NCBI GenBank assembly: GCA_026399835.1
Contig: JAPLQE010000014.1
Coordinates: forward strand, 1-64,000
DNA length: 64,000 bases
Reading direction: 5' to 3'
Source: Burkholderiales bacterium
Lineage (GTDB): Bacteria > Pseudomonadota > Gammaproteobacteria > Burkholderiales > Burkholderiaceae_E
Made by a program: the position numbers and the translations under genes. This document shows, piece by piece, positions 54,903 to 62,898 of the stretch. The notes under the pieces are model-generated. The model was not told the origin of the DNA. It searched no databases and saw only the letters and a list, made by a program, of their open reading frames with translations. Position 1 is the stretch's first letter; each line of letters starts with the position of its first letter.

Positions 54903-55667
54903 GTGCGCCTGGGTCCGGCCCTGCGGACGCTCGCCGCCGGCCTCGTGCTGGCGGGGCCGCTGTCGGCGGTCGCCGCGCCCGAGCAGCGGGTCAACGAGTT
55001 CTGGCCCGAGCTCGACGTCTTCGTGCCGATCGACGAGCGCAGCCGGCTCTTCCTGCTCGGCTCGTTCGCGCGCGGCCGCGAATACGCGACCGCGACCGAG
55101 GCGACCTGGGGCATCCACTACGACCGCTTCGCCCGTCCGCTGCCCGACTGGTGGCGCCAGGCGGTGCCGATGATGGAGCAGGGCTGGAGCCTGTCGTTCC
55201 GGGTCGGCTACAACCGCATCGCCGCCCTCGGCGCCGACGACGGCCGCGGCGCCGCCGAGAACCGGCTGCTGGGCGATGTCACGCTGCGCAGCGTGCCGCT
55301 CCTCTGGGGCCTGAAGATCTCCGATCGCAGCCGGCTCGAGCTGCGCGACATCGACGGCATCCGCTCCTGGCGCTACCGCAACCGCGGGCGCATCGAGCGC
55401 GGCTTCGCACCGCGCGAGCTGCTCGGCGAGTCGCTCGGCTCGCCGCTGGCAACGCTGGGCGTGGCCGGCATCACGCCGTACGCGACGCTCGAATGGTTCT
55501 GGGACTCGCGCCCGGCCGACTGGAACCGCCGCTACCAGCAGTACGGCGTCGAGGTCGAGCTCCGCGGCCGGCTGGGGGCCGAGCTGTACGTCGGCATCCA
55601 GGACCAGGCGCGCGCATCGAGCTCGCGCGTGGTCGCCGTCGGCACCGCGCTGGTGGTGCGCTACTGA
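54903..55667 (+). CDS. DUF2490-like outer-membrane beta-barrel protein
   Basis: 254 residues from a GTG at 54903, 5 bp after ssb. Signal peptide ~1-25 (LAAGLVLAGPLSAVAA). The mature part, starting EFWPELDVFVPIDERSRLFLLGS, alternates hydrophobic and polar residues through to the terminal VVRY and resembles DUF2490-type proteins thought to be small outer-membrane barrels. No enzymatic residues are obvious. Proximity to ssb suggests shared transcription. A hairpin follows at 55685-55703. Confidence 0.65.
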   Translation: MRLGPALRTLAAGLVLAGPLSAVAAPEQRVNEFWPELDVFVPIDERSRLFLLGSFARGREYATATEATWGIHYDRFARPLPDWWRQAVPMMEQGWSLSFRVGYNRIAALGADDGRGAAENRLLGDVTLRSVPLLWGLKISDRSRLELRDIDGIRSWRYRNRGRIERGFAPRELLGESLGSPLATLGVAGITPYATLEWFWDSRPADWNRRYQQYGVEVELRGRLGAELYVGIQDQARASSSRVVAVGTALVVRY

Positions 55668-55684
55668 GTCACCGAGTCTCGGAT

Positions 55685-55703
55685 CGGACGGAGCCGCCGT
55701 CCG
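55685..55703. terminator. Hairpin after the DUF2490-like gene
   Basis: CGGACGG (55685-55691), 5-base loop AGCCG, CCGTCCG (55697-55703). A 7-bp GC-rich stem 18 bp past the stop, without a T-run; a plausible, weak terminator before the large mosaic gene. Confidence 0.45.
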
Positions 55704-55812
55704 CGCGACCGCTTCCGACAGCCACGCTCGCCGTTCGTGACCGAGTTCACGGCGCTCGTCGGACGCCTCCGCGACCCTCTGCGCTTCAGATGCGCGACAT
55801 GCGGGTGGCAGG

Positions 55813-58800
55813 ATGCGGCACTTCTCGGCGGGACGGTGGGTCAGGGCATTCGCGGTCACCGCGACGGCGGCGGCGCTGGCGGCCTGCGGACAGGGCGGCG
55901 AGGCGCCGTCCGAGGCCGCGCAGGGCGCGGCATCCGGTGTCCCCGCGGCCGATCCGTCCAGTCGGGTCGCCTCGAAGGTCGTGCGCGACGAGCGCGCGCA
56001 GGTCGGCGGCCTCTGGGACGCGCCCTTCGACATGTCGGTGATCGCCATCCACATGGCGCTGCAGCCGGGCGGCCGCGTGCTGTACTACGGCAGCGACCTG
56101 AACGGCGTGCAGACCGCCTCGAAGCAGTACGCGGTCTGGGATCCGGCCGCCGGCACCGACGCCGACAGCGTGATGGTGCTGCCGAACGGCAGCGGCACCG
56201 ACCTGTTCTGCAGCTCGCAGACGCTGATGCCCGACGGCAAGACGCTGATCGCCGGCGGCGACATGCCGGATGCGGGCAACACCGCGAACCGCGACTCGAA
56301 CGTCTTCGACGCCGCGAACAACAGCCTCACGAAGCGCACGCCGATGAACCGCGAGCGCTGGTACTCGACGACGACCACGCTGACGAACGGCGAGGTCTAC
56401 ATCCAGGGCGGCGCGGGCGGTCACGACCGTCCCGAGATCCGCCGCGCGGACGGCTCCTTCGACCTGCTCGAGAACGCCGACACCTCGGGCATCGACTGGG
56501 CCTTCCCGCGCAACTGGGTGGCCCCCGACGGGCGTGTCTTCGGCATCGACGGCTCGGGCCGGATGTACTACGTCGATACCGCCGGTGAAGGCACGCTGGT
56601 AAGTGCCGGGCAGCTGCCCGCGGGCGCCGCGGTCGGCTCGGCCGGCGCGGCGATGTTCCGGCCGGGCCGCATCCTCGGCCTGTCCTCGCAGTCGCCGGCG
56701 GCGCACGTCGTCGACATCCGCTCGGGCACGCCCGCGGTCGCGGGCACCGAAGCGCTGTCGGGCCTGCGCATCCACGGCGTGGCGACGGTGCTGGCCGACG
56801 GCCGCGTGCTCGCCAGCGGCGGCAGCACCCAGGACAACCAGCGCGAATCCGCGCTCCGCAGCGCCGAGGTCTGGAACCCGGTGACCGGCGAATGGACGAT
56901 CGGGCCGTCGCAGGTCAACCCGCGCCTGTACCACGGCACCGCGCTGCTGCTGCCCGACGGCCGCGTGCTGGTCGCCGGCGGCGGCGCCCCGGGTCCGCTG
57001 GTCAACCGCAACGGCGAGATCTACTCGCCCTCGTACCTCTTCGACGCGAACGGGATGCCGGCGCGGCGACCGGCCATCAGCGCTGCGCCCGAGTCGCTGC
57101 AGCCGGGCCGCTCCTTCGCGCTGCGCGTCGGCGCTGGCGCGGTCTCGCGCGTGACCCTGGTGCGCTTCGGCTCGGTCAGCCACTCGTGGAACAGCGACCA
57201 GCGCTTCCTGGACCTGCCGTTCCGCGCCACCGAGGCGTCGGGTTCGGCCGTCGCGGTGCAGCTGCCCTCGCGCGCCACCGACACGCCTCCGGGCTTCTAC
57301 ATGCTGTTCGCCTGGGACGCGAACGGCGTGCCCTCGGTCGCCCGCACGGTGCGCATCACCGAGCCCGGCGATCCGGGCGCCGCGCACGCGCCGACGGTCG
57401 ACGCCATCGCCGACCGTGCCTGGACCTCCGGCGACGTCGTGCTGCAGCCGGTCGGCCGCAGCCCGCGCGGCACGCCCGTCGTCTGGAGCGCGAGCGGCCT
57501 GCCCCAGGGCCTGGCGATCGACCGCACGAGCGGCGCCATCACCGGCCGCCCGACGCGCGCCGGCCAGCACTTCGTGACGGTCGCCGCCGACGACGGCACC
57601 TGGACCGGCACGCGCTCCTTCCTGTGGACGGTCACGCCCTCGCAGGCGCAGCTCGCCCAGCCCGAATCGAGCGGCCCGGTGGCGGCCGGCACCGGCGCGA
57701 GCTTCACCGCCCGGGCCACCGGCGCGGGCCTCACCTACGAATGGCGCTTCGGCGACGGCACGCCGCCGACCGCGCGAAGCAGCACGCCGAGCGTCAACCA
57801 CGTGTTCGCGGGGCCCGGCGTCTACACGGTGACCGTCACCGTCTACGACGCCGAGGGGCGCCCGGTCACCGGCTCGTTCCTGCAGGTCGTGCACGGCGCG
57901 ACCGGCAGGCAGGCGGCGCGCTCGTCGATGCTCGCGCTCTCGGGCACCGGCGCCGCGCAGCGGCTGTGGGTCGCGAACCCCGACGCGAACACCGTCGCGG
58001 TGTTCGACGCGGCGAACCGCACGCGGCTCGCCGAGATCCCGGTGGGCGAACAGCCGGTGACGCTGACAGTGGCCGGCGACGGCCGCGTCTGGGTGGCGAA
58101 CCGCCGCTCGGCGAGCCTGTCGGTGATCGACCCGGGCACGCGCGCGGTGGTCCGCACGATCGCGCTGCCCGCGGGCTCGCAGCCCTACGGCGTGGTCGCC
58201 GATCCGGCCGGCCGCAACGTGTGGGTGGTGATGGAGGGCACGGGCGCGCTGTACCGCTACGACGCCACCAGCTTCGCGCGGACCGGTGCCACGGCCGTCG
58301 GCGCGAACACGCGCCACCTGGCGATCACCGGCGACGGCGCGACCGTCTACGCGACGCGATTCATCACGCCGCCGCTGCCGGGCGAGTCGACCGCGAAGGT
58401 CCATCCGTACGCCGACGGCCGGATCCACGGTGCCCGGGTGATCCCGGTCGATGCGGCGAAGTTGACCGTCGGCACGCACATCGTGCTGCGCCACAGCGAC
58501 CGGCAGGACGCCGAGAACCAGGGCCGCGGCATCCCGAACTACCTGGGCGCGATGGCGATCTCGCCCGACGCCAGCCAGGCGTTCGTGCCGTCGAAGCAGG
58601 ACAACGTGCTGCGCGGCACGCTGCGCGACAACGGCCGCGACCTCGACTTCCAGAACACCGTGCGCGCGGTGAGCTCGCGGATCGTGATGGCGACGCGCGC
58701 GGAGGACCCCGACGCCCGGATCGACCACGACAACGCCAGCCTCGCGAGCGCCGCGACCTTCGACCCGCTGGGCACGCTGCTCTTCGTCGCGCTCGAGACG

Positions 58801-61371
58801 AGCCGCGAGGTGGCGGTGGTCGACGCCTACTCGCGCGCGCAGCTCATGCGGGTGCAGGTCGGCCGCGCTCCGCAGGGCCTGCAGGTCTCGCCCGACGGCA
58901 GCCGGCTGTACGTCGCGAACTTCATGGACCGCACGGTCACCGTGCTCGACCTCGCGCCGCTGCGCACGCGCGGCCGCTTCGAGGTGCCGGTGCTCGGCAC
59001 GCTGCCCACGGTCGCCACGGAACCGCTGTCCGCGCAGGTCCTGCTCGGCAAGCAGCTGTTCTACGACGCGGCCGACACGCGCCTGGCGCGCGACCGGTAC
59101 ATGAGCTGCGCGAGCTGCCACAACGACGGCGGCCACGACGGCCGTACCTGGGACCTGACCGGCGCGGGCGAGGGCCTGCGCAACACGATCAGCCTGCGCG
59201 GACGCGGCGGCATGCGCCACGGCCAGCTGCACTGGAGCGGCAACTTCGACGAGGTGCAGGACTTCGAGGGCCAGATCCGCAGGCTCGCGGGCGGCACCGG
59301 CCTGATGAGCGACGCCGACTTCGCGGTCGGCACGCGCTCGCAGCCGATCGGCACGCCGAAGGCCGGCGTCAGCGCCGACCTCGACGCGCTCGCCGCCTAC
59401 GTGGGCTCGCTGACCGCGGTCGACCGCAGCCCGCACCGGGCGGCCAACGGCGCGCCCAGCGCCGCCGAGGCGCTCGGGCGCGAGGTGTTCGCCGAGCGCT
59501 GCGCGAGCTGCCATGCCGGCCCCGCCGCCACCGACAGCGCGCCCGGCGGCCGGCATGCCGTCGGTACGCTGAAGGCCGCGAGCGGCAAGCGGCTGGGCGG
59601 CCTGCTCGGCGGCATCGACACGCCCTCGCTCTCGGACGCCTGGGCGACCGAGCCCTACCTGCACGACGGTTCGGCGCCGACGCTGGCAGCCGCCATCGCC
59701 GCCCATGTCCCGGGCCTGGCCGCCGGCGACCTCGCCGAGGTCGCGACCTTCGTGCGCAACGGCGCGGTCGACACCGTCGCACCGCCCCGCCGGCTCGAGG
59801 GCACCGCGGTCCGCGCGGTGGGCAGCGCCGTGGCACGGCCCGACGGTTCGACGCGGCTGACCTCGGCCTTCAGCCAGGCCGGTGCGCTCTGGAGCACGCA
59901 GGCGTGGCCGACCGCGCAGCCCTTCACCACGTCGTTCGACTTCGCCATGGACGGCACCGGACGGCAGGCCGACGGTCTGGCCTTCGTGCTGCAGGGTTCG
60001 GGGCCGGGCGCGATCGGCGGCGCAGGCGGCTGCATCGGCCTGTGCGGCCTGTCGAACGGGCTCGCCGCGACCGTACGCACCTGGATGTACAACGACGGCG
60101 GCTTCGTGCACGAAGGCCGCCCGGGCCGGCCGCTCGGCTTCGACGCCGGCGCCGCGCGGCGCATCGTCGGCCGCATGTCGGTGACCTGGAACCCGGCATC
60201 GAACCGGCTGTCGATGACCGCGGCGATGCTGGTCGACGGCGTGCCGCGCACCTTTGCCGACAGCATGACCGTCGACCTGCGCACGCGCTTCGGCGCGACG
60301 GTGACCGCCGGCATCACCGGCGGCACGGGCGGCGCGATGGCGATCCAGGCGGTCTCGAACTGGAGCACCGCAGCGATCGTCCCGGCGCCGCGCCGCGACG
60401 ACGCCCGCACCGACTTCGGCGGCATCGCCATCGGCGCGCCCGAGTGCGTGTCGTGGGCCGAGGGCCGCCAGGACTGCTTCGTGGTCGGCACGGACGGCGC
60501 GCTGTACCAGCGCTTCAGCGCGGCGGACGGCACGTGGAACCCGGGCTGGGTCCGCCAGGGCGGCGCCCTCGCCGCCGGCCGGCCGTCGTGCGTGAGCACC
60601 GCGGCGGGCCGCCTCGACTGCTTCGCGGTCGGCCGCGATCGCGCGCTGTGGCAGCGCAGCTGGGACGGCGCGCGCTGGCTCGACTGGCGCTCGCTCGGCG
60701 GCACCACGGGCTCGGATCCGTCATGCGTCGCGGGTCCGCTCGGACGCATCGACTGCGTGGTCCGCGGCCCCGGGAACGCGCTGTTCTCGCGCACGCTCGC
60801 CGGCGGTGCCTGGGGCGGCTGGCGCAGCCTCGGCGGCGTGCTGACCTCCGCGCCCGACTGTGTGCTGGATGCCCAGGGCGCCACGCAGTGCTTCGCGCGC
60901 GGCAACGATGCGGCGCTGTGGCAGAAGGCGGTCGAGCCGGGCGGCAGCTGGCGCTCGCTCGGCGGCTGGATCCACGGCGACTCCTCGTGCGCGACGCAGG
61001 CCGACGGCCTGATGCGCTGCTTCGTGCGCGGCAGCGACGACGGGCTGTGGGGCAACGCCTTCGACGGCGTGCGCTGGAGCGGCTGGCGCCAGGAGCGCGC
61101 CTCGGTCGGCCTGGTGCAGGCGCCGCCGCGCTGCGTCGCATCGCCCGAGCGCAACGGCGTCGACTGCTTCGTGGTGACCAACGACGGCACGCTGCGCCAC
61201 CGCGTGCGCGACGGCGGCGGACCGGACGAGGGCGCGTGGCCGTGGACGGTCGCGGTCACCGGGCTGGCGCCCGAGGCGCCGGGCTGCATCGCGCAGCGCG
61301 GCACGGTCTCCTGCACGGCCCGCGTCGCCGCGGACCGCCGCGTGGTGAACGAGAGCTGGACCGTGGACTGA
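55813..61371 (+). CDS. Mosaic lipoprotein: copper-radical oxidase-like + PKD + YVTN propeller + di-haem cytochrome + lectins
   Basis: 1852 residues; lipobox ALAAC with C25, so a surface or periplasmic lipoprotein. ~50-410: kelch propeller of galactose/glyoxal oxidase type, with C133 (LFCSSQ) for the Cys-Tyr cofactor, Y184 (RWYST), Y373-H374 (LYHG) and H457 (SHSW in ~415-520, the DUF1929/E-set domain): the full copper-ligand set. Ig-like and PKD domains follow (~525-700, YEWRFGDG), then a YVTN propeller (~715-1055). Next is a MauG/CCP-like di-haem domain with CASCH at 1099-1103 and CASCH at 1230-1234, then an L-type lectin domain (~1335-1525), and PLL/fucolectin-like repeats (~1540-1852) with CFVxGxDxALxQR. 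Probably oxidises a sugar or aldehyde and handles the H2O2. Reading frame is intact. Assignments are from motifs. Confidence 0.85.
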   Translation: MRHFSAGRWVRAFAVTATAAALAACGQGGEAPSEAAQGAASGVPAADPSSRVASKVVRDERAQVGGLWDAPFDMSVIAIHMALQPGGRVLYYGSDLNGVQTASKQYAVWDPAAGTDADSVMVLPNGSGTDLFCSSQTLMPDGKTLIAGGDMPDAGNTANRDSNVFDAANNSLTKRTPMNRERWYSTTTTLTNGEVYIQGGAGGHDRPEIRRADGSFDLLENADTSGIDWAFPRNWVAPDGRVFGIDGSGRMYYVDTAGEGTLVSAGQLPAGAAVGSAGAAMFRPGRILGLSSQSPAAHVVDIRSGTPAVAGTEALSGLRIHGVATVLADGRVLASGGSTQDNQRESALRSAEVWNPVTGEWTIGPSQVNPRLYHGTALLLPDGRVLVAGGGAPGPLVNRNGEIYSPSYLFDANGMPARRPAISAAPESLQPGRSFALRVGAGAVSRVTLVRFGSVSHSWNSDQRFLDLPFRATEASGSAVAVQLPSRATDTPPGFYMLFAWDANGVPSVARTVRITEPGDPGAAHAPTVDAIADRAWTSGDVVLQPVGRSPRGTPVVWSASGLPQGLAIDRTSGAITGRPTRAGQHFVTVAADDGTWTGTRSFLWTVTPSQAQLAQPESSGPVAAGTGASFTARATGAGLTYEWRFGDGTPPTARSSTPSVNHVFAGPGVYTVTVTVYDAEGRPVTGSFLQVVHGATGRQAARSSMLALSGTGAAQRLWVANPDANTVAVFDAANRTRLAEIPVGEQPVTLTVAGDGRVWVANRRSASLSVIDPGTRAVVRTIALPAGSQPYGVVADPAGRNVWVVMEGTGALYRYDATSFARTGATAVGANTRHLAITGDGATVYATRFITPPLPGESTAKVHPYADGRIHGARVIPVDAAKLTVGTHIVLRHSDRQDAENQGRGIPNYLGAMAISPDASQAFVPSKQDNVLRGTLRDNGRDLDFQNTVRAVSSRIVMATRAEDPDARIDHDNASLASAATFDPLGTLLFVALETSREVAVVDAYSRAQLMRVQVGRAPQGLQVSPDGSRLYVANFMDRTVTVLDLAPLRTRGRFEVPVLGTLPTVATEPLSAQVLLGKQLFYDAADTRLARDRYMSCASCHNDGGHDGRTWDLTGAGEGLRNTISLRGRGGMRHGQLHWSGNFDEVQDFEGQIRRLAGGTGLMSDADFAVGTRSQPIGTPKAGVSADLDALAAYVGSLTAVDRSPHRAANGAPSAAEALGREVFAERCASCHAGPAATDSAPGGRHAVGTLKAASGKRLGGLLGGIDTPSLSDAWATEPYLHDGSAPTLAAAIAAHVPGLAAGDLAEVATFVRNGAVDTVAPPRRLEGTAVRAVGSAVARPDGSTRLTSAFSQAGALWSTQAWPTAQPFTTSFDFAMDGTGRQADGLAFVLQGSGPGAIGGAGGCIGLCGLSNGLAATVRTWMYNDGGFVHEGRPGRPLGFDAGAARRIVGRMSVTWNPASNRLSMTAAMLVDGVPRTFADSMTVDLRTRFGATVTAGITGGTGGAMAIQAVSNWSTAAIVPAPRRDDARTDFGGIAIGAPECVSWAEGRQDCFVVGTDGALYQRFSAADGTWNPGWVRQGGALAAGRPSCVSTAAGRLDCFAVGRDRALWQRSWDGARWLDWRSLGGTTGSDPSCVAGPLGRIDCVVRGPGNALFSRTLAGGAWGGWRSLGGVLTSAPDCVLDAQGATQCFARGNDAALWQKAVEPGGSWRSLGGWIHGDSSCATQADGLMRCFVRGSDDGLWGNAFDGVRWSGWRQERASVGLVQAPPRCVASPERNGVDCFVVTNDGTLRHRVRDGGGPDEGAWPWTVAVTGLAPEAPGCIAQRGTVSCTARVAADRRVVNESWTVD

Positions 61372-61488
61372 CGCCGCCCGGGCCCGACGTGCGACGTGCA
61401 TCGCCGCCGGGCCCGCATCGCCGTCGCGATGCCGACCCCACGGTGCCGACCCAGCGGCGCGGCTGGGCGGGCGCCGCCGCATCGGCGG

Positions 61489-61494
61489 TATCCT
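61489..61494 (+). promoter_or_regulatory. TATCCT, candidate -10 element of hmgA
   Basis: GCGGTATCCTCGGGCGG lies 34 bp before the hmgA GTG and 117 bp after the previous stop. No clear -35. Shares TATCCTCG with the elements at 39220 and 43751. Confidence 0.35.
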
Positions 61495-61527
61495 CGGGCG
61501 GATCGATCCGACCGAGCGAGGCCCCCC

Positions 61528-62898
61528 GTGAACCGTCCCGAGACCGTCGTCGCCGCGCCTGCCTGCCAGTCCGGCTTCGGCAACGAGTTCGCCACCGAGG
61601 CGCTGCCGGGCGCGCTGCCGGTCGGGCGCAACTCGCCGCAGCGCTGCCCGTACGGCCTGTACGCCGAGCAGATCTCCGGCACGGCCTTCACGGCGCCGCG
61701 CGCCGAGAACCGCCGCACCTGGACCTACCGGATCCGCCCGGGCGCGCTGCACGGCCCATTCCGGCGGATCGCCGACCGCGGCATCGTCGGCGCCTTCGGC
61801 GAGGCCGCCGGCGTCGAGACCCCGCCCTCGCAGCTGCGCTGGAGCCCGCTGCCGCTGCCCGACGCGACGACCGACTTCGTCGACGGCCTGTTCACGATGG
61901 GCGGCAACGGCGACGCCGCCTCGATGACCGGCTGTGCGGTCCACCTGTATGCGGCGAACCGCTCGATGCGCGATCGCTTCTTCTACGACGCCGACGGCGA
62001 GCTGCTGATCGTGCCGCAGCAGGGCACGCTGCGGCTGCTGACCGAACTCGGCGAGCTCGTCGTGCCGCCGCTGCACATCGCGGTGGTGCCGCGCGGCGTG
62101 CGCTTTCGCGTGGAGCTGCCCGAGGTCGACGCGGGCGGCCCCGACGCCGACCGGCCCGGGGCCCTGGCTGCGGTGCGGGGCTACGTCTGCGAGAACTTCG
62201 GCGCGCCGCTCAGGCTGCCCGACCTCGGCCCGATCGGCTCGAACGGCCTGGCGAACCCGCGCGACTTCCTGTCGCCGGTGGCCCGCTACGAGGACCGCGA
62301 AGGCGCCTTCGAGCTGGTCGCGAAGTTCCAGGGCCGGCTGTGGGCGGCCGACATCGGTCACTCGCCGCTCGACGTCGTCGCCTGGCACGGCAATCACGTG
62401 CCCTACCTCTACGACCTGCGCCGCTTCAACACCATCGGCTCGATCAGCTTCGACCATCCCGACCCGTCGATCTTCCTGGTGCTGCAGTCGGTGTCGGACA
62501 CGCCCGGCGTCGACACGCTCGACTTCGTGATCTTCCCGCCGCGCATCCTCGCCGCCGAGGACACCTTCCGACCGCCCTGGTTCCACCGCAACGTCGCCAG
62601 CGAGTTCATGGGCCTGATCCACGGCGTCTACGACGCCAAGGCCGAGGGCTTCTCGCCCGGGGGCGCGAGCCTGCACAACTGCATGTCGGGCCACGGTCCG
62701 GACGCCGGCACCTTCGAGAAGGCGAGTGCGGCCGACACCTCGGTGGCGCACTACGTGCGCGACACCATGGCCTTCATGTTCGAGACCCGCGCCGTGATCC
62801 ATCCGACCGCGCAGGCGCTGGCGCTGCCCACGCTGCAGCAGGACTACTGGCGCTGCTGGCAGGGCCTCGCCAGGCACTTCGATCCGACCCGCCGCTGA
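61528..62898 (+). CDS. hmgA: Homogentisate 1,2-dioxygenase
   Basis: 456 residues from a GTG at 61528; the upstream frame does not look coding. The opening [28 protein letters not shown] and FTMGGNGD are family signatures. Non-haem iron ligands are H353 and E359 ([14 protein letters not shown]) and H389 (SGHGPD). It opens the ring of homogentisate in phenylalanine/tyrosine degradation, making maleylacetoacetate. The usual partner fahA/hmgB and maiA genes are not in the window; the next gene is an oxidoreductase. Confidence 0.95.

What the first reader, a model, noticed from the sequence alone, without database searches (positions are those of the whole stretch)
55813..61371. One polypeptide joins a copper-radical oxidase, a di-haem peroxidase-like cytochrome and lectins
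Residues matching the copper-radical centre (C133, Y184, Y373-H374, H457) lie in a kelch propeller. Further along are PKD and YVTN modules, then two CxxCH haem motifs (CASCH 1099-1103 and 1230-1234) of the MauG/CCP type, then an L-type lectin and a tachylectin-like propeller. Galactose/glyoxal oxidases make H2O2, and di-haem peroxidases consume it, so this could be a self-contained surface machine: bind a glycan, oxidise it, and use or remove the peroxide. I know of no described protein with this exact order. All the domain calls rest on motifs read by eye.
Basis: partly seen in the sequence, partly recalled or inferred. Interest (0 to 1): 0.88.

Follow-up and report, generated by a model that had tools for sequence, protein, structure and literature searches.

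The report
Sugar-oxidising copper enzyme fused to haem
One very long bacterial surface protein joins a copper enzyme of the sugar-oxidising kind to a two-haem redox unit and sugar-binding ends, and the same uncharacterised core turns up in many other bacteria, so it looks like a widespread oxidase that carries its own redox partner.

Summary
The 1852-aa ORF 55813-61371 (+) is a predicted lipoprotein with a copper-radical oxidase (CRO, 65-515), Ig and PKD linkers, a YVTN propeller (701-1056), a di-haem CCP/MauG-fold module (1057-1325), an L-type lectin and a PLL-type lectin propeller. The five copper-radical residues are identical in 92 of 92 aligned CROs. The core CRO-linker-propeller-di-haem recurs: a search with the propeller/di-haem part alone kept 80 loci, of which 73 carry a CRO in the same ORF, 5 a CRO cut by a contig end, 2 run off the contig. 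Titles name Pseudomonadota and MAGs of four other phyla. A SCO1/SenC copper-chaperone gene is adjacent in 42 of 80, but in only 2 of 20 loci of the window's own CRO clade. I propose a glycan-anchored CRO with a built-in haem partner that activates it and/or handles its peroxide. Architecture near certain; mechanism inferred. Listings of ten paper searches showed no description.

The parts
55813..55887 (+). signal peptide ending in the lipobox L-A-A-C25 (predicted lipoprotein; next residue Gly)
   Evidence: read directly; a simple lipobox pattern occurs upstream of the CRO in 51 of 73 fused ORFs (chance hits and misses both possible)
56005..57357 (+). copper-radical oxidase: kelch propeller and GO-like E-set domain (residues 65-515); C133 56209-56211, Y184 56362-56364, Y373-H374 56929-56934, H457 57181-57183
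   Evidence: Pfam; PDB galactose oxidase 1.5e-51; five residues identical in 92 of 92
57391..57636 (+). He_PIG Ig-like linker domain (527-608)
   Evidence: E 3.6e-9
57664..57861 (+). PKD domain (618-683)
   Evidence: E 4e-15
57913..58980 (+). YVTN beta-propeller, hydrazine-synthase-beta-like (701-1056)
   Evidence: AlphaFold2 of 701-1326 pLDDT 88.7, pTM 0.91; Foldseek second match 5c2v_B, TMt 0.74
58981..59787 (+). di-haem c module of the CCP/MauG/HZS-gamma fold (1057-1325): CASCH 59107-59121 and 59500-59514, conserved HW..NF.E..DF.QIR segment 59230-59280, predicted axial His1298 59704-59706
59821..60402 (+). L-type (legume-type) lectin domain (about 1337-1530)
   Evidence: Lectin_legB over cut-off; 7elv 7.8e-8
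60439..61368 (+). PLL-type lectin propeller (1543-1852); seven units each with a Cys pair
   Evidence: PLL family PDB chains, best 3.2e-50; Cys positions

Best explanation
It is an exported, lipid-anchored, glycan-binding copper-radical oxidase with a built-in redox partner. SHOWN by sequence: the CRO with its full set of Cu/Tyr-Cys residues, the propeller plus two-haem c module, and the C-terminal lectins. SHOWN by comparison: the CRO-linker-propeller-di-haem unit recurs in one ORF in many bacteria; in other clades than the window's it is mostly beside a SCO1/SenC copper-chaperone gene, and in one set also beside a small cytochrome c gene. INFERRED: after export the haems are attached and Cu is supplied (by SCO-type chaperones where present); Cys133-Tyr184 cross-link; the lectins hold the enzyme on a polysaccharide; the CRO oxidises a primary alcohol or aldehyde there and makes H2O2. 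The di-haem module exchanges single electrons with the CRO, so it keeps the CRO in its active Cu(II)-radical state, using part of the H2O2 as oxidant, and removes surplus peroxide: a job done in trans by CorPerox for a fungal alcohol oxidase and perhaps by DtpA for Streptomyces GlxA. Because its second haem is predicted bis-His, it should work by electron transfer as in HZS gamma, not by MauG-type bis-Fe(IV) hole sharing.
For: Domains and fold. Cu residues 92 of 92. Recurrence: 73 of 80 loci complete in one ORF, 5 more with a CRO cut by a contig end, with no CRO in the query. SCO within 1.5 kb on the same strand in 42 of 80 loci and no further SCO hit in the fetched flanks, 945 kb in all; 42 of 42 match PF02630, its two Cys and His invariant. 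Small cytochrome c gene within 1.5 kb in 21 of 80, each also with SCO. L155 has an upstream MbnP-MauG fusion, L138 and L150 YtkA-MauG proteins. Separate-gene pairing: of 300 genomes of the order 8 have the di-haem module, 14 a CRO, 5 both, 3 of these as separate genes. Precedents: GlxA maturation needs Sco and the haem peroxidase DtpA in low copper (PMC4736821, passages); a tandem peroxidase activates a fungal CRO although its own peroxidase activity is moderate (PMC9770985, passages); the HZS gammaII haem is bis-His near a cytochrome c site (PMC12607021, passages).
Against: In the window's own CRO clade the SCO linkage is rare (2 of 20 loci, against 14 of 15 and 26 of 45 in the other two sets) and the small cytochrome gene absent (0 of 20); the window genome's two SCO genes are on other contigs. 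Added copper rescues GlxA maturation without DtpA, and its authors propose that DtpA oxidises Sco-bound Cu(I), not that it sets the radical. CCP distal Gln/Pro/Glu are not in register, so peroxide use by the haem is not assured. The linker between CRO and propeller varies from 107 to about 700 residues, against one rigid CRO-haem interface. Di-haem modules of this family without a CRO in the genome exist: 3 of 8 genomes and 2 of 5. The Fisher P value is inflated: three of the five both-carrying genomes are one genus. No coordinates were available, so Cu-haem geometry was not measured. The haem-only model is of moderate confidence (pLDDT 76.4; Foldseek rmsd of the listed matches 7.3-12.1 A).
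Confidence: 0.45

Rival explanations
1. One reading: a di-haem peroxidase that simply consumes the CRO's H2O2 (or uses it on a second substrate), with no role in activating the CRO.
For: CCP/MauG fold with two CxxCH and a Trp aligned with the inter-haem Trp; other invariant polar residues (E1147, D1150, E1152, Q1154, R1156) lie in the same segment; the axial Tyr-to-His variant of BthA kept H2O2 reduction (PMC6405878, passages).
Against: Distal Gln/Pro/Glu not in register; first match HZS gamma, if by a small margin.
Confidence: 0.18
2. Wired dehydrogenase: the CRO hands substrate electrons to the two haems and a cytochrome c (and so to respiration or outside acceptors) in place of, or as well as, O2, like quinohaemoprotein dehydrogenases with cytochrome domains.
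For: HZS-gamma-like predicted bis-His second haem, small cytochrome c gene next door in 21 of 80 loci, no CCP distal residues in register.
Against: CROs are known as O2-reducing oxidases (recalled); the long variable linkers do not suggest a tight electron path; the cytochrome gene was found in 0 of 20 loci of the window's clade.
Confidence: 0.18
3. Di-haem unit as maturase: it builds or repairs the Tyr-Cys cofactor, or handles Cu redox state during metallation, and is idle afterwards.
For: SCO neighbours in other clades, adjacent MbnP-MauG and YtkA-MauG genes in some loci, DtpA requirement for GlxA maturation in low copper and the proposal that DtpA oxidises Sco-bound Cu(I).
Against: His in place of MauG's axial Tyr: Y294H MauG and Y463H BthA lose the bis-Fe(IV) near-infrared feature. 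Galactose-oxidase cross-links form with Cu and O2 alone (recalled). SCO rare in the window's clade.
Confidence: 0.1
4. Accident of domain shuffling: a modular surface protein in which the parts do not interact functionally.
For: Highly modular: variable linkers and C-terminal binding domains.
Against: Core order kept in 73 of 80 loci, Cu residues and, but for two loci, intact haem motifs invariant, purifying selection on CRO, propeller and haem parts.
Confidence: 0.05

Closest known systems
AA5 copper-radical oxidases (fungal galactose oxidase, glyoxal oxidase; bacterial GlxA)
   Same: kelch propeller, E-set domain and all five Cu/Tyr-Cys residues
   Different: the AA5-like chains listed are 488-714 residues long and no haem part is named; the residue before the radical Tyr is Trp in 67 of 92 and Gly in 17, by recall a glyoxal-oxidase-like versus galactose-oxidase-like split
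Hydrazine synthase beta-gamma (anammox; fused in Scalindua japonica)
   Same: propeller followed by di-haem module; first profile and Foldseek match of the haem part; gammaII bis-His
   Different: no third conserved haem-binding Cys; joined to a CRO. PMC12758564 (passages) says distant HZS beta-gamma homologues are highly prevalent in environmental bacteria; the word 'galactose' does not occur in its main text
Bacterial di-haem CCP / MauG / MbnH / BthA
   Same: fold, two CxxCH, HDG motif, Trp aligned with the CCP inter-haem Trp
   Different: residue 14 after the HDG His is His, not Met or Tyr; distal Gln/Pro/Glu not in register
CRO plus haem peroxidase pairs in trans: GlxA-DtpA-Sco in Streptomyces; CorAlcOx-CorPerox in Colletotrichum
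   Same: a CRO that depends on, or is activated by, a haem peroxidase; Sco needed for GlxA maturation in low copper (PMC4736821, PMC9770985; passages)
   Different: DyP-type and class II peroxidases, separate proteins; here a c-type di-haem module in the same chain. Copper alone rescues the dtpA mutant
Burkholderia pseudomallei AA5 oxidase fused to an inactive CE3 domain (Mazurkewich 2023)
   Same: bacterial CRO fusion protein
   Different: esterase-type partner in the title; only the reference entry was seen, in PMC11267884
PLL family lectins of Photorhabdus
   Same: C-terminal lectin propeller
   Different: each of the seven units here has a Cys pair; that PLL lacks these is recalled

Membership tests
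AA5 copper-radical oxidase | kelch propeller with E-set domain | tested here: met
AA5 copper-radical oxidase | Cys-Tyr cross-link pair, axial Tyr, two His | tested here: met
   identical in 92 of 92
AA5 copper-radical oxidase | Cu binding, radical, H2O2-forming oxidation | not testable with these tools
   needs protein
bacterial di-haem cytochrome c peroxidase | di-haem CCP/MauG fold with two CxxCH | tested here: met
bacterial di-haem cytochrome c peroxidase | distal Gln, Pro, Glu at +10, +14, +20 from the inter-haem Trp (NgBCCP W98, Q108, P112, E118) | tested here: not met
   F, I, G in all 76 rows; alignment to 3o5c; residues. An indel of one or two residues could bring E1152 or Q1154 near
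bacterial di-haem cytochrome c peroxidase | Met as sixth ligand of the E haem | tested here: not met
   His in 73 of 73 rows that reach it, 3 end before
MauG / MbnH / BthA | Tyr as sixth ligand, bis-Fe(IV) | tested here: not met
   His; Y294H MauG and Y463H BthA lose the near-infrared feature
hydrazine synthase beta-gamma | propeller followed by di-haem subunit | tested here: met
hydrazine synthase beta-gamma | haem gammaI bound by three Cys | tested here: not met
   only the four CxxC Cys are conserved; three Cys in HZS
hydrazine synthase beta-gamma | HZS alpha partner gene nearby | not tested
   no dedicated search was made
PLL lectin | seven-unit PLL-type propeller sequence | tested here: met
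PLL lectin | sugar binding (fucose and the like, recalled) | not testable with these tools
   needs protein

The most novel reading that the evidence does not exclude
A new, widespread class of self-sufficient copper-radical oxidase: the tethered HZS-like di-haem module is the enzyme's own activator, setting and resetting the Tyr-Cys radical with the enzyme's own peroxide or through a cytochrome c, and couples glycan oxidation at the cell surface to the cell's electron transport.
Probability: 0.28. Interest if true: 0.85.

Novelty: new variant of a known kind. Interest (0 to 1): 0.7.

Why it matters
How bacterial copper-radical oxidases are activated and what they do is largely open (recalled), and laboratory assays add horseradish peroxidase (PMC11267884, passages). 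A natural family in which the oxidase is tied to a haem redox unit, in many members beside a copper-chaperone gene, offers a direct system to test whether haem-driven activation is general. It also gives a function-linked home to some of the orphan hydrazine-synthase beta-gamma-like proteins of environmental bacteria, and possible self-contained biocatalysts for glycan and alcohol oxidation.

Tried and rejected
Independent-fusion idea: FastTree trees of CRO and of propeller/di-haem looked incongruent, but a better model needed only 4 changes of CRO class on the propeller/di-haem tree (least possible 2) and did not reject one class as a clade (p-AU 0.736); I dropped the claim of several independent fusions.

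Foldseek with the whole propeller-haem model is swamped by propellers, hence the haem-only model. Promoter and terminator scan of 55500-61600 found nothing. Ten paper searches listed no description of a CRO joined to a di-haem module; I saw listings only (one search listed 15 of 394, 10 of 27) and passages of eight papers, and the library holds open-licence papers only.

Assembly artefact rejected: the same full-length gene is found in G008 and G010, 94 and 85% identical. Tachylectin rejected for PLL. On the final recount the SCO and cytochrome linkage proved clade-specific and nearly absent from the window's clade; for this I lowered the best explanation from 0.5 to 0.45, the wired rival from 0.22 to 0.18 and the novel reading from 0.3 to 0.28, and raised plain peroxide removal to 0.18 and the maturase to 0.1.

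Dropped before counts: 75 tails of 40 or more residues were found, 74 scanned. A3 and A6 hold 75 of the 80 loci plus the window; left out were L090 and L105 (second haem motif CxxxCH), L095 (broken in the haem part), L112 and L156. Trees use 62 of 73 rows. CROs cut by contig ends were left out of the 92; one pair of the 92 is the same gene twice. The two halves of each co-occurrence test are taken to be the same draw of genomes; the tool does not list all the genomes without a match.

Full report
WHAT IS THERE. The ORF 55813-61371 (+) encodes 1852 aa without an internal stop and starts with a signal peptide ending in a lipobox (LAAC, Cys25). Pfam, NCBIfam and PDB sequence searches give, in order: a copper-radical oxidase (CRO; residues 65-515; galactose oxidase 1.5e-51), a He_PIG Ig domain, a PKD domain, a YVTN beta-propeller, a di-haem CCP/MauG-type module, an L-type lectin and a Photorhabdus-PLL-type lectin propeller. 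The six Cys of residues 1-1330 are the lipobox Cys, C133 of the copper radical site and four haem-binding Cys; the C-terminal propeller has seven Cys pairs.

MORE THAN CHANCE. Full-length homologues 94 and 85% identical exist in two other genomes of the same genus, and a third has the gene split at contig ends. dN/dS against the two is 0.18-0.42 in the CRO, linker, propeller, haem and lectin parts; the first 60 residues give 1.03 and 0.31. The five copper-radical residues are identical in 92 of 92 CROs aligned, 77 from fused ORFs and 15 stand-alone (91 distinct).

A RECURRENT ARCHITECTURE. With profiles made here, 73 of the 80 carry CRO, propeller and di-haem in one ORF (one of them, L095, broken inside the haem part), 5 have a CRO cut by a contig end, and 2 have ORFs running off the contig before a CRO could be seen. 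Record titles without 'MAG' include Parvibium, Rivibacter, Piscinibacter, Leptothrix, Steroidobacter, Rhizobacter, Paracidovorax, Leucothrix, Undibacterium and Burkholderia strains; MAG titles include Verrucomicrobia, Planctomycetota, Chloroflexi and Polyangiaceae. The best 80 favour near relatives; in less selected samples the module is rare and not always with a CRO. Of 300 genomes of the order 8 have the di-haem module, 14 a CRO, 5 both (2 fused, 3 separate; Fisher 5e-6, inflated because the three separate cases are one genus). Of 369 of the class 5 have it, 13 a CRO, 3 both, each in one ORF. In one search, 8 of the 9 listed genomes of one genus of the family have both parts; the module ORFs of the nine are 714-913 aa long, and the eight read show no CRO. 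The linker between CRO and propeller ranges from 107 to about 700 residues. The C-terminus is a swappable binding slot: PA14 in 35 of 74 tails, GLEYA in 30, and ricin-B, F5/8-C, jacalin, CBM6/35/60 or L-type lectin domains in others. The window's lectin pair is shared by its closest relatives L079 and L080; L081 has L-type lectin matches only.

GENE NEIGHBOURS. A SCO1/SenC gene lies within 1.5 kb on the same strand in 42 of 80 loci, with no further SCO hit in the fetched flanks, 945 kb in all (the profile was seeded from one neighbour); 42 of 42 match PF02630 and keep the CxxxC and the distal His. By CRO clade it is 2 of 20 in the window's clade, 14 of 15 in a second, and 26 of 45 in the rest. 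A small single-CxxCH cytochrome gene is within 1.5 kb in 21 loci, each also with SCO (one more lies just outside), none of them in the window's clade. L155 has an upstream MbnP-MauG fusion; L138 and L150 have YtkA-MauG proteins downstream. The window gene itself has no such neighbour: upstream is a DUF2490-like protein (weak hit), downstream by recall homogentisate dioxygenase; the genome's SCO genes are on other contigs. The copper-chaperone argument therefore speaks for the family at large, not for the window's clade.

THE HAEM MODULE. AlphaFold2 with 76 rows gives pLDDT 88.7 and pTM 0.91 for propeller plus haem, and 76.4 and 0.77 for haem alone. The 50 listed Foldseek matches of the haem model are di-haem CCP/MauG proteins and HZS gamma; HZS gamma is first by E-value (TMq 0.53), CCP 3o5c higher by TM-score (0.59). 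The profile search puts HZS gamma first with 84.3 bits against 81.9 for 3o5c. Bacterial CCPs use Trp98, Gln108, Pro112 and Glu118 with Met280 as ligand (Neisseria numbering, PMC10094543, passages). Here W1141 aligns with that Trp and is W in 75 of 76, but +10, +14 and +20 are F, I and G in all 76 rows; instead H1140, N1144, F1145, E1147, D1150, F1151, E1152, Q1154, I1155 and R1156 are invariant. The residue 14 after the HDG His, Met in 3o5c and Tyr in MbnH by the same count, is His1298 (73 of 73 rows that reach it; Gln in one CRO-less relative, L062). MauG Y294H and BthA Y463H lose the bis-Fe(IV) near-infrared feature while BthA Y463H keeps H2O2 reduction (PMC6405878, passages). [quoted passage not shown] So the module is best read as an HZS-gamma-like electron-transfer and small-molecule haem unit; peroxide is its likeliest partner mainly because a peroxide-making enzyme is attached to it.

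MECHANISM. Precedent for haem-assisted CROs exists in trans: in low copper no mature GlxA was seen in the dtpA mutant in liquid culture, and Sco is also needed; added copper rescues both, and the authors propose that DtpA oxidises Sco-bound Cu(I) (PMC4736821, passages). A Colletotrichum tandem peroxidase activates its alcohol oxidase much more than horseradish peroxidase does, with moderate peroxidase activity of its own (PMC9770985, passages). The present family puts CRO and haem unit in one chain. I therefore favour a glycan-tethered oxidase with a built-in haem redox partner (0.45), over plain peroxide removal (0.18), direct electron wiring (0.18), maturase (0.1) and no interaction (0.05).

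NOVELTY. The parts are known kinds; a CRO-di-haem fusion was not found in the listings of ten searches of an open-licence library. PMC12758564 (passages) notes that HZS beta-gamma homologues are highly prevalent in environmental bacteria. I rate this a new variant of a known kind, widespread and unusually testable.

Noticed in passing
G000 contig 77, locus L064 5592-11844: Further CRO genes of the same genome lie between cytochrome oxidase biogenesis genes with a SCO gene and sugar-nucleotide genes that look like GDP-fucose synthesis (by recall); one CRO there lies in three frames. PLL lectins bind fucose (recalled), so a fucosylated surface glycan could be the target.
   Followed up: partly
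L083 6785-14488: Rivibacter subsaxonicus has one 2568-aa ORF with a CRO and two tandem propeller/di-haem copies with identical profile scores.
   Followed up: no
L090 and L105, second haem motif: Two Rubrivivax MAG homologues have CxxxCH (one residue longer) as second haem motif.
   Followed up: no
L062 7287-11273 and G094, G221, G316: The same propeller/di-haem module in genomes without a CRO hit; in L062 (G094) it is joined to LVIVD repeats, Ig and PKD domains instead, with Gln in place of the axial His.
   Followed up: partly
G000 contig 42, locus L159 11610-14113: A two-CxxCH MauG-type gene followed by a cupredoxin-like gene (by eye), a small cytochrome c and a SCO gene.
   Followed up: no
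window 54903-55667: 254-aa predicted outer-membrane protein just upstream, weak DUF2490 hit, kept next to the gene in L079.
   Followed up: partly
L155 5298-7082 and L152 5226-7076: ORFs directly upstream of two Verrucomicrobia fusion genes; L155's is MbnP fused to a MauG-type enzyme (Pfam), L152's has two CxxCH and weak matches to the haem profile.
   Followed up: partly
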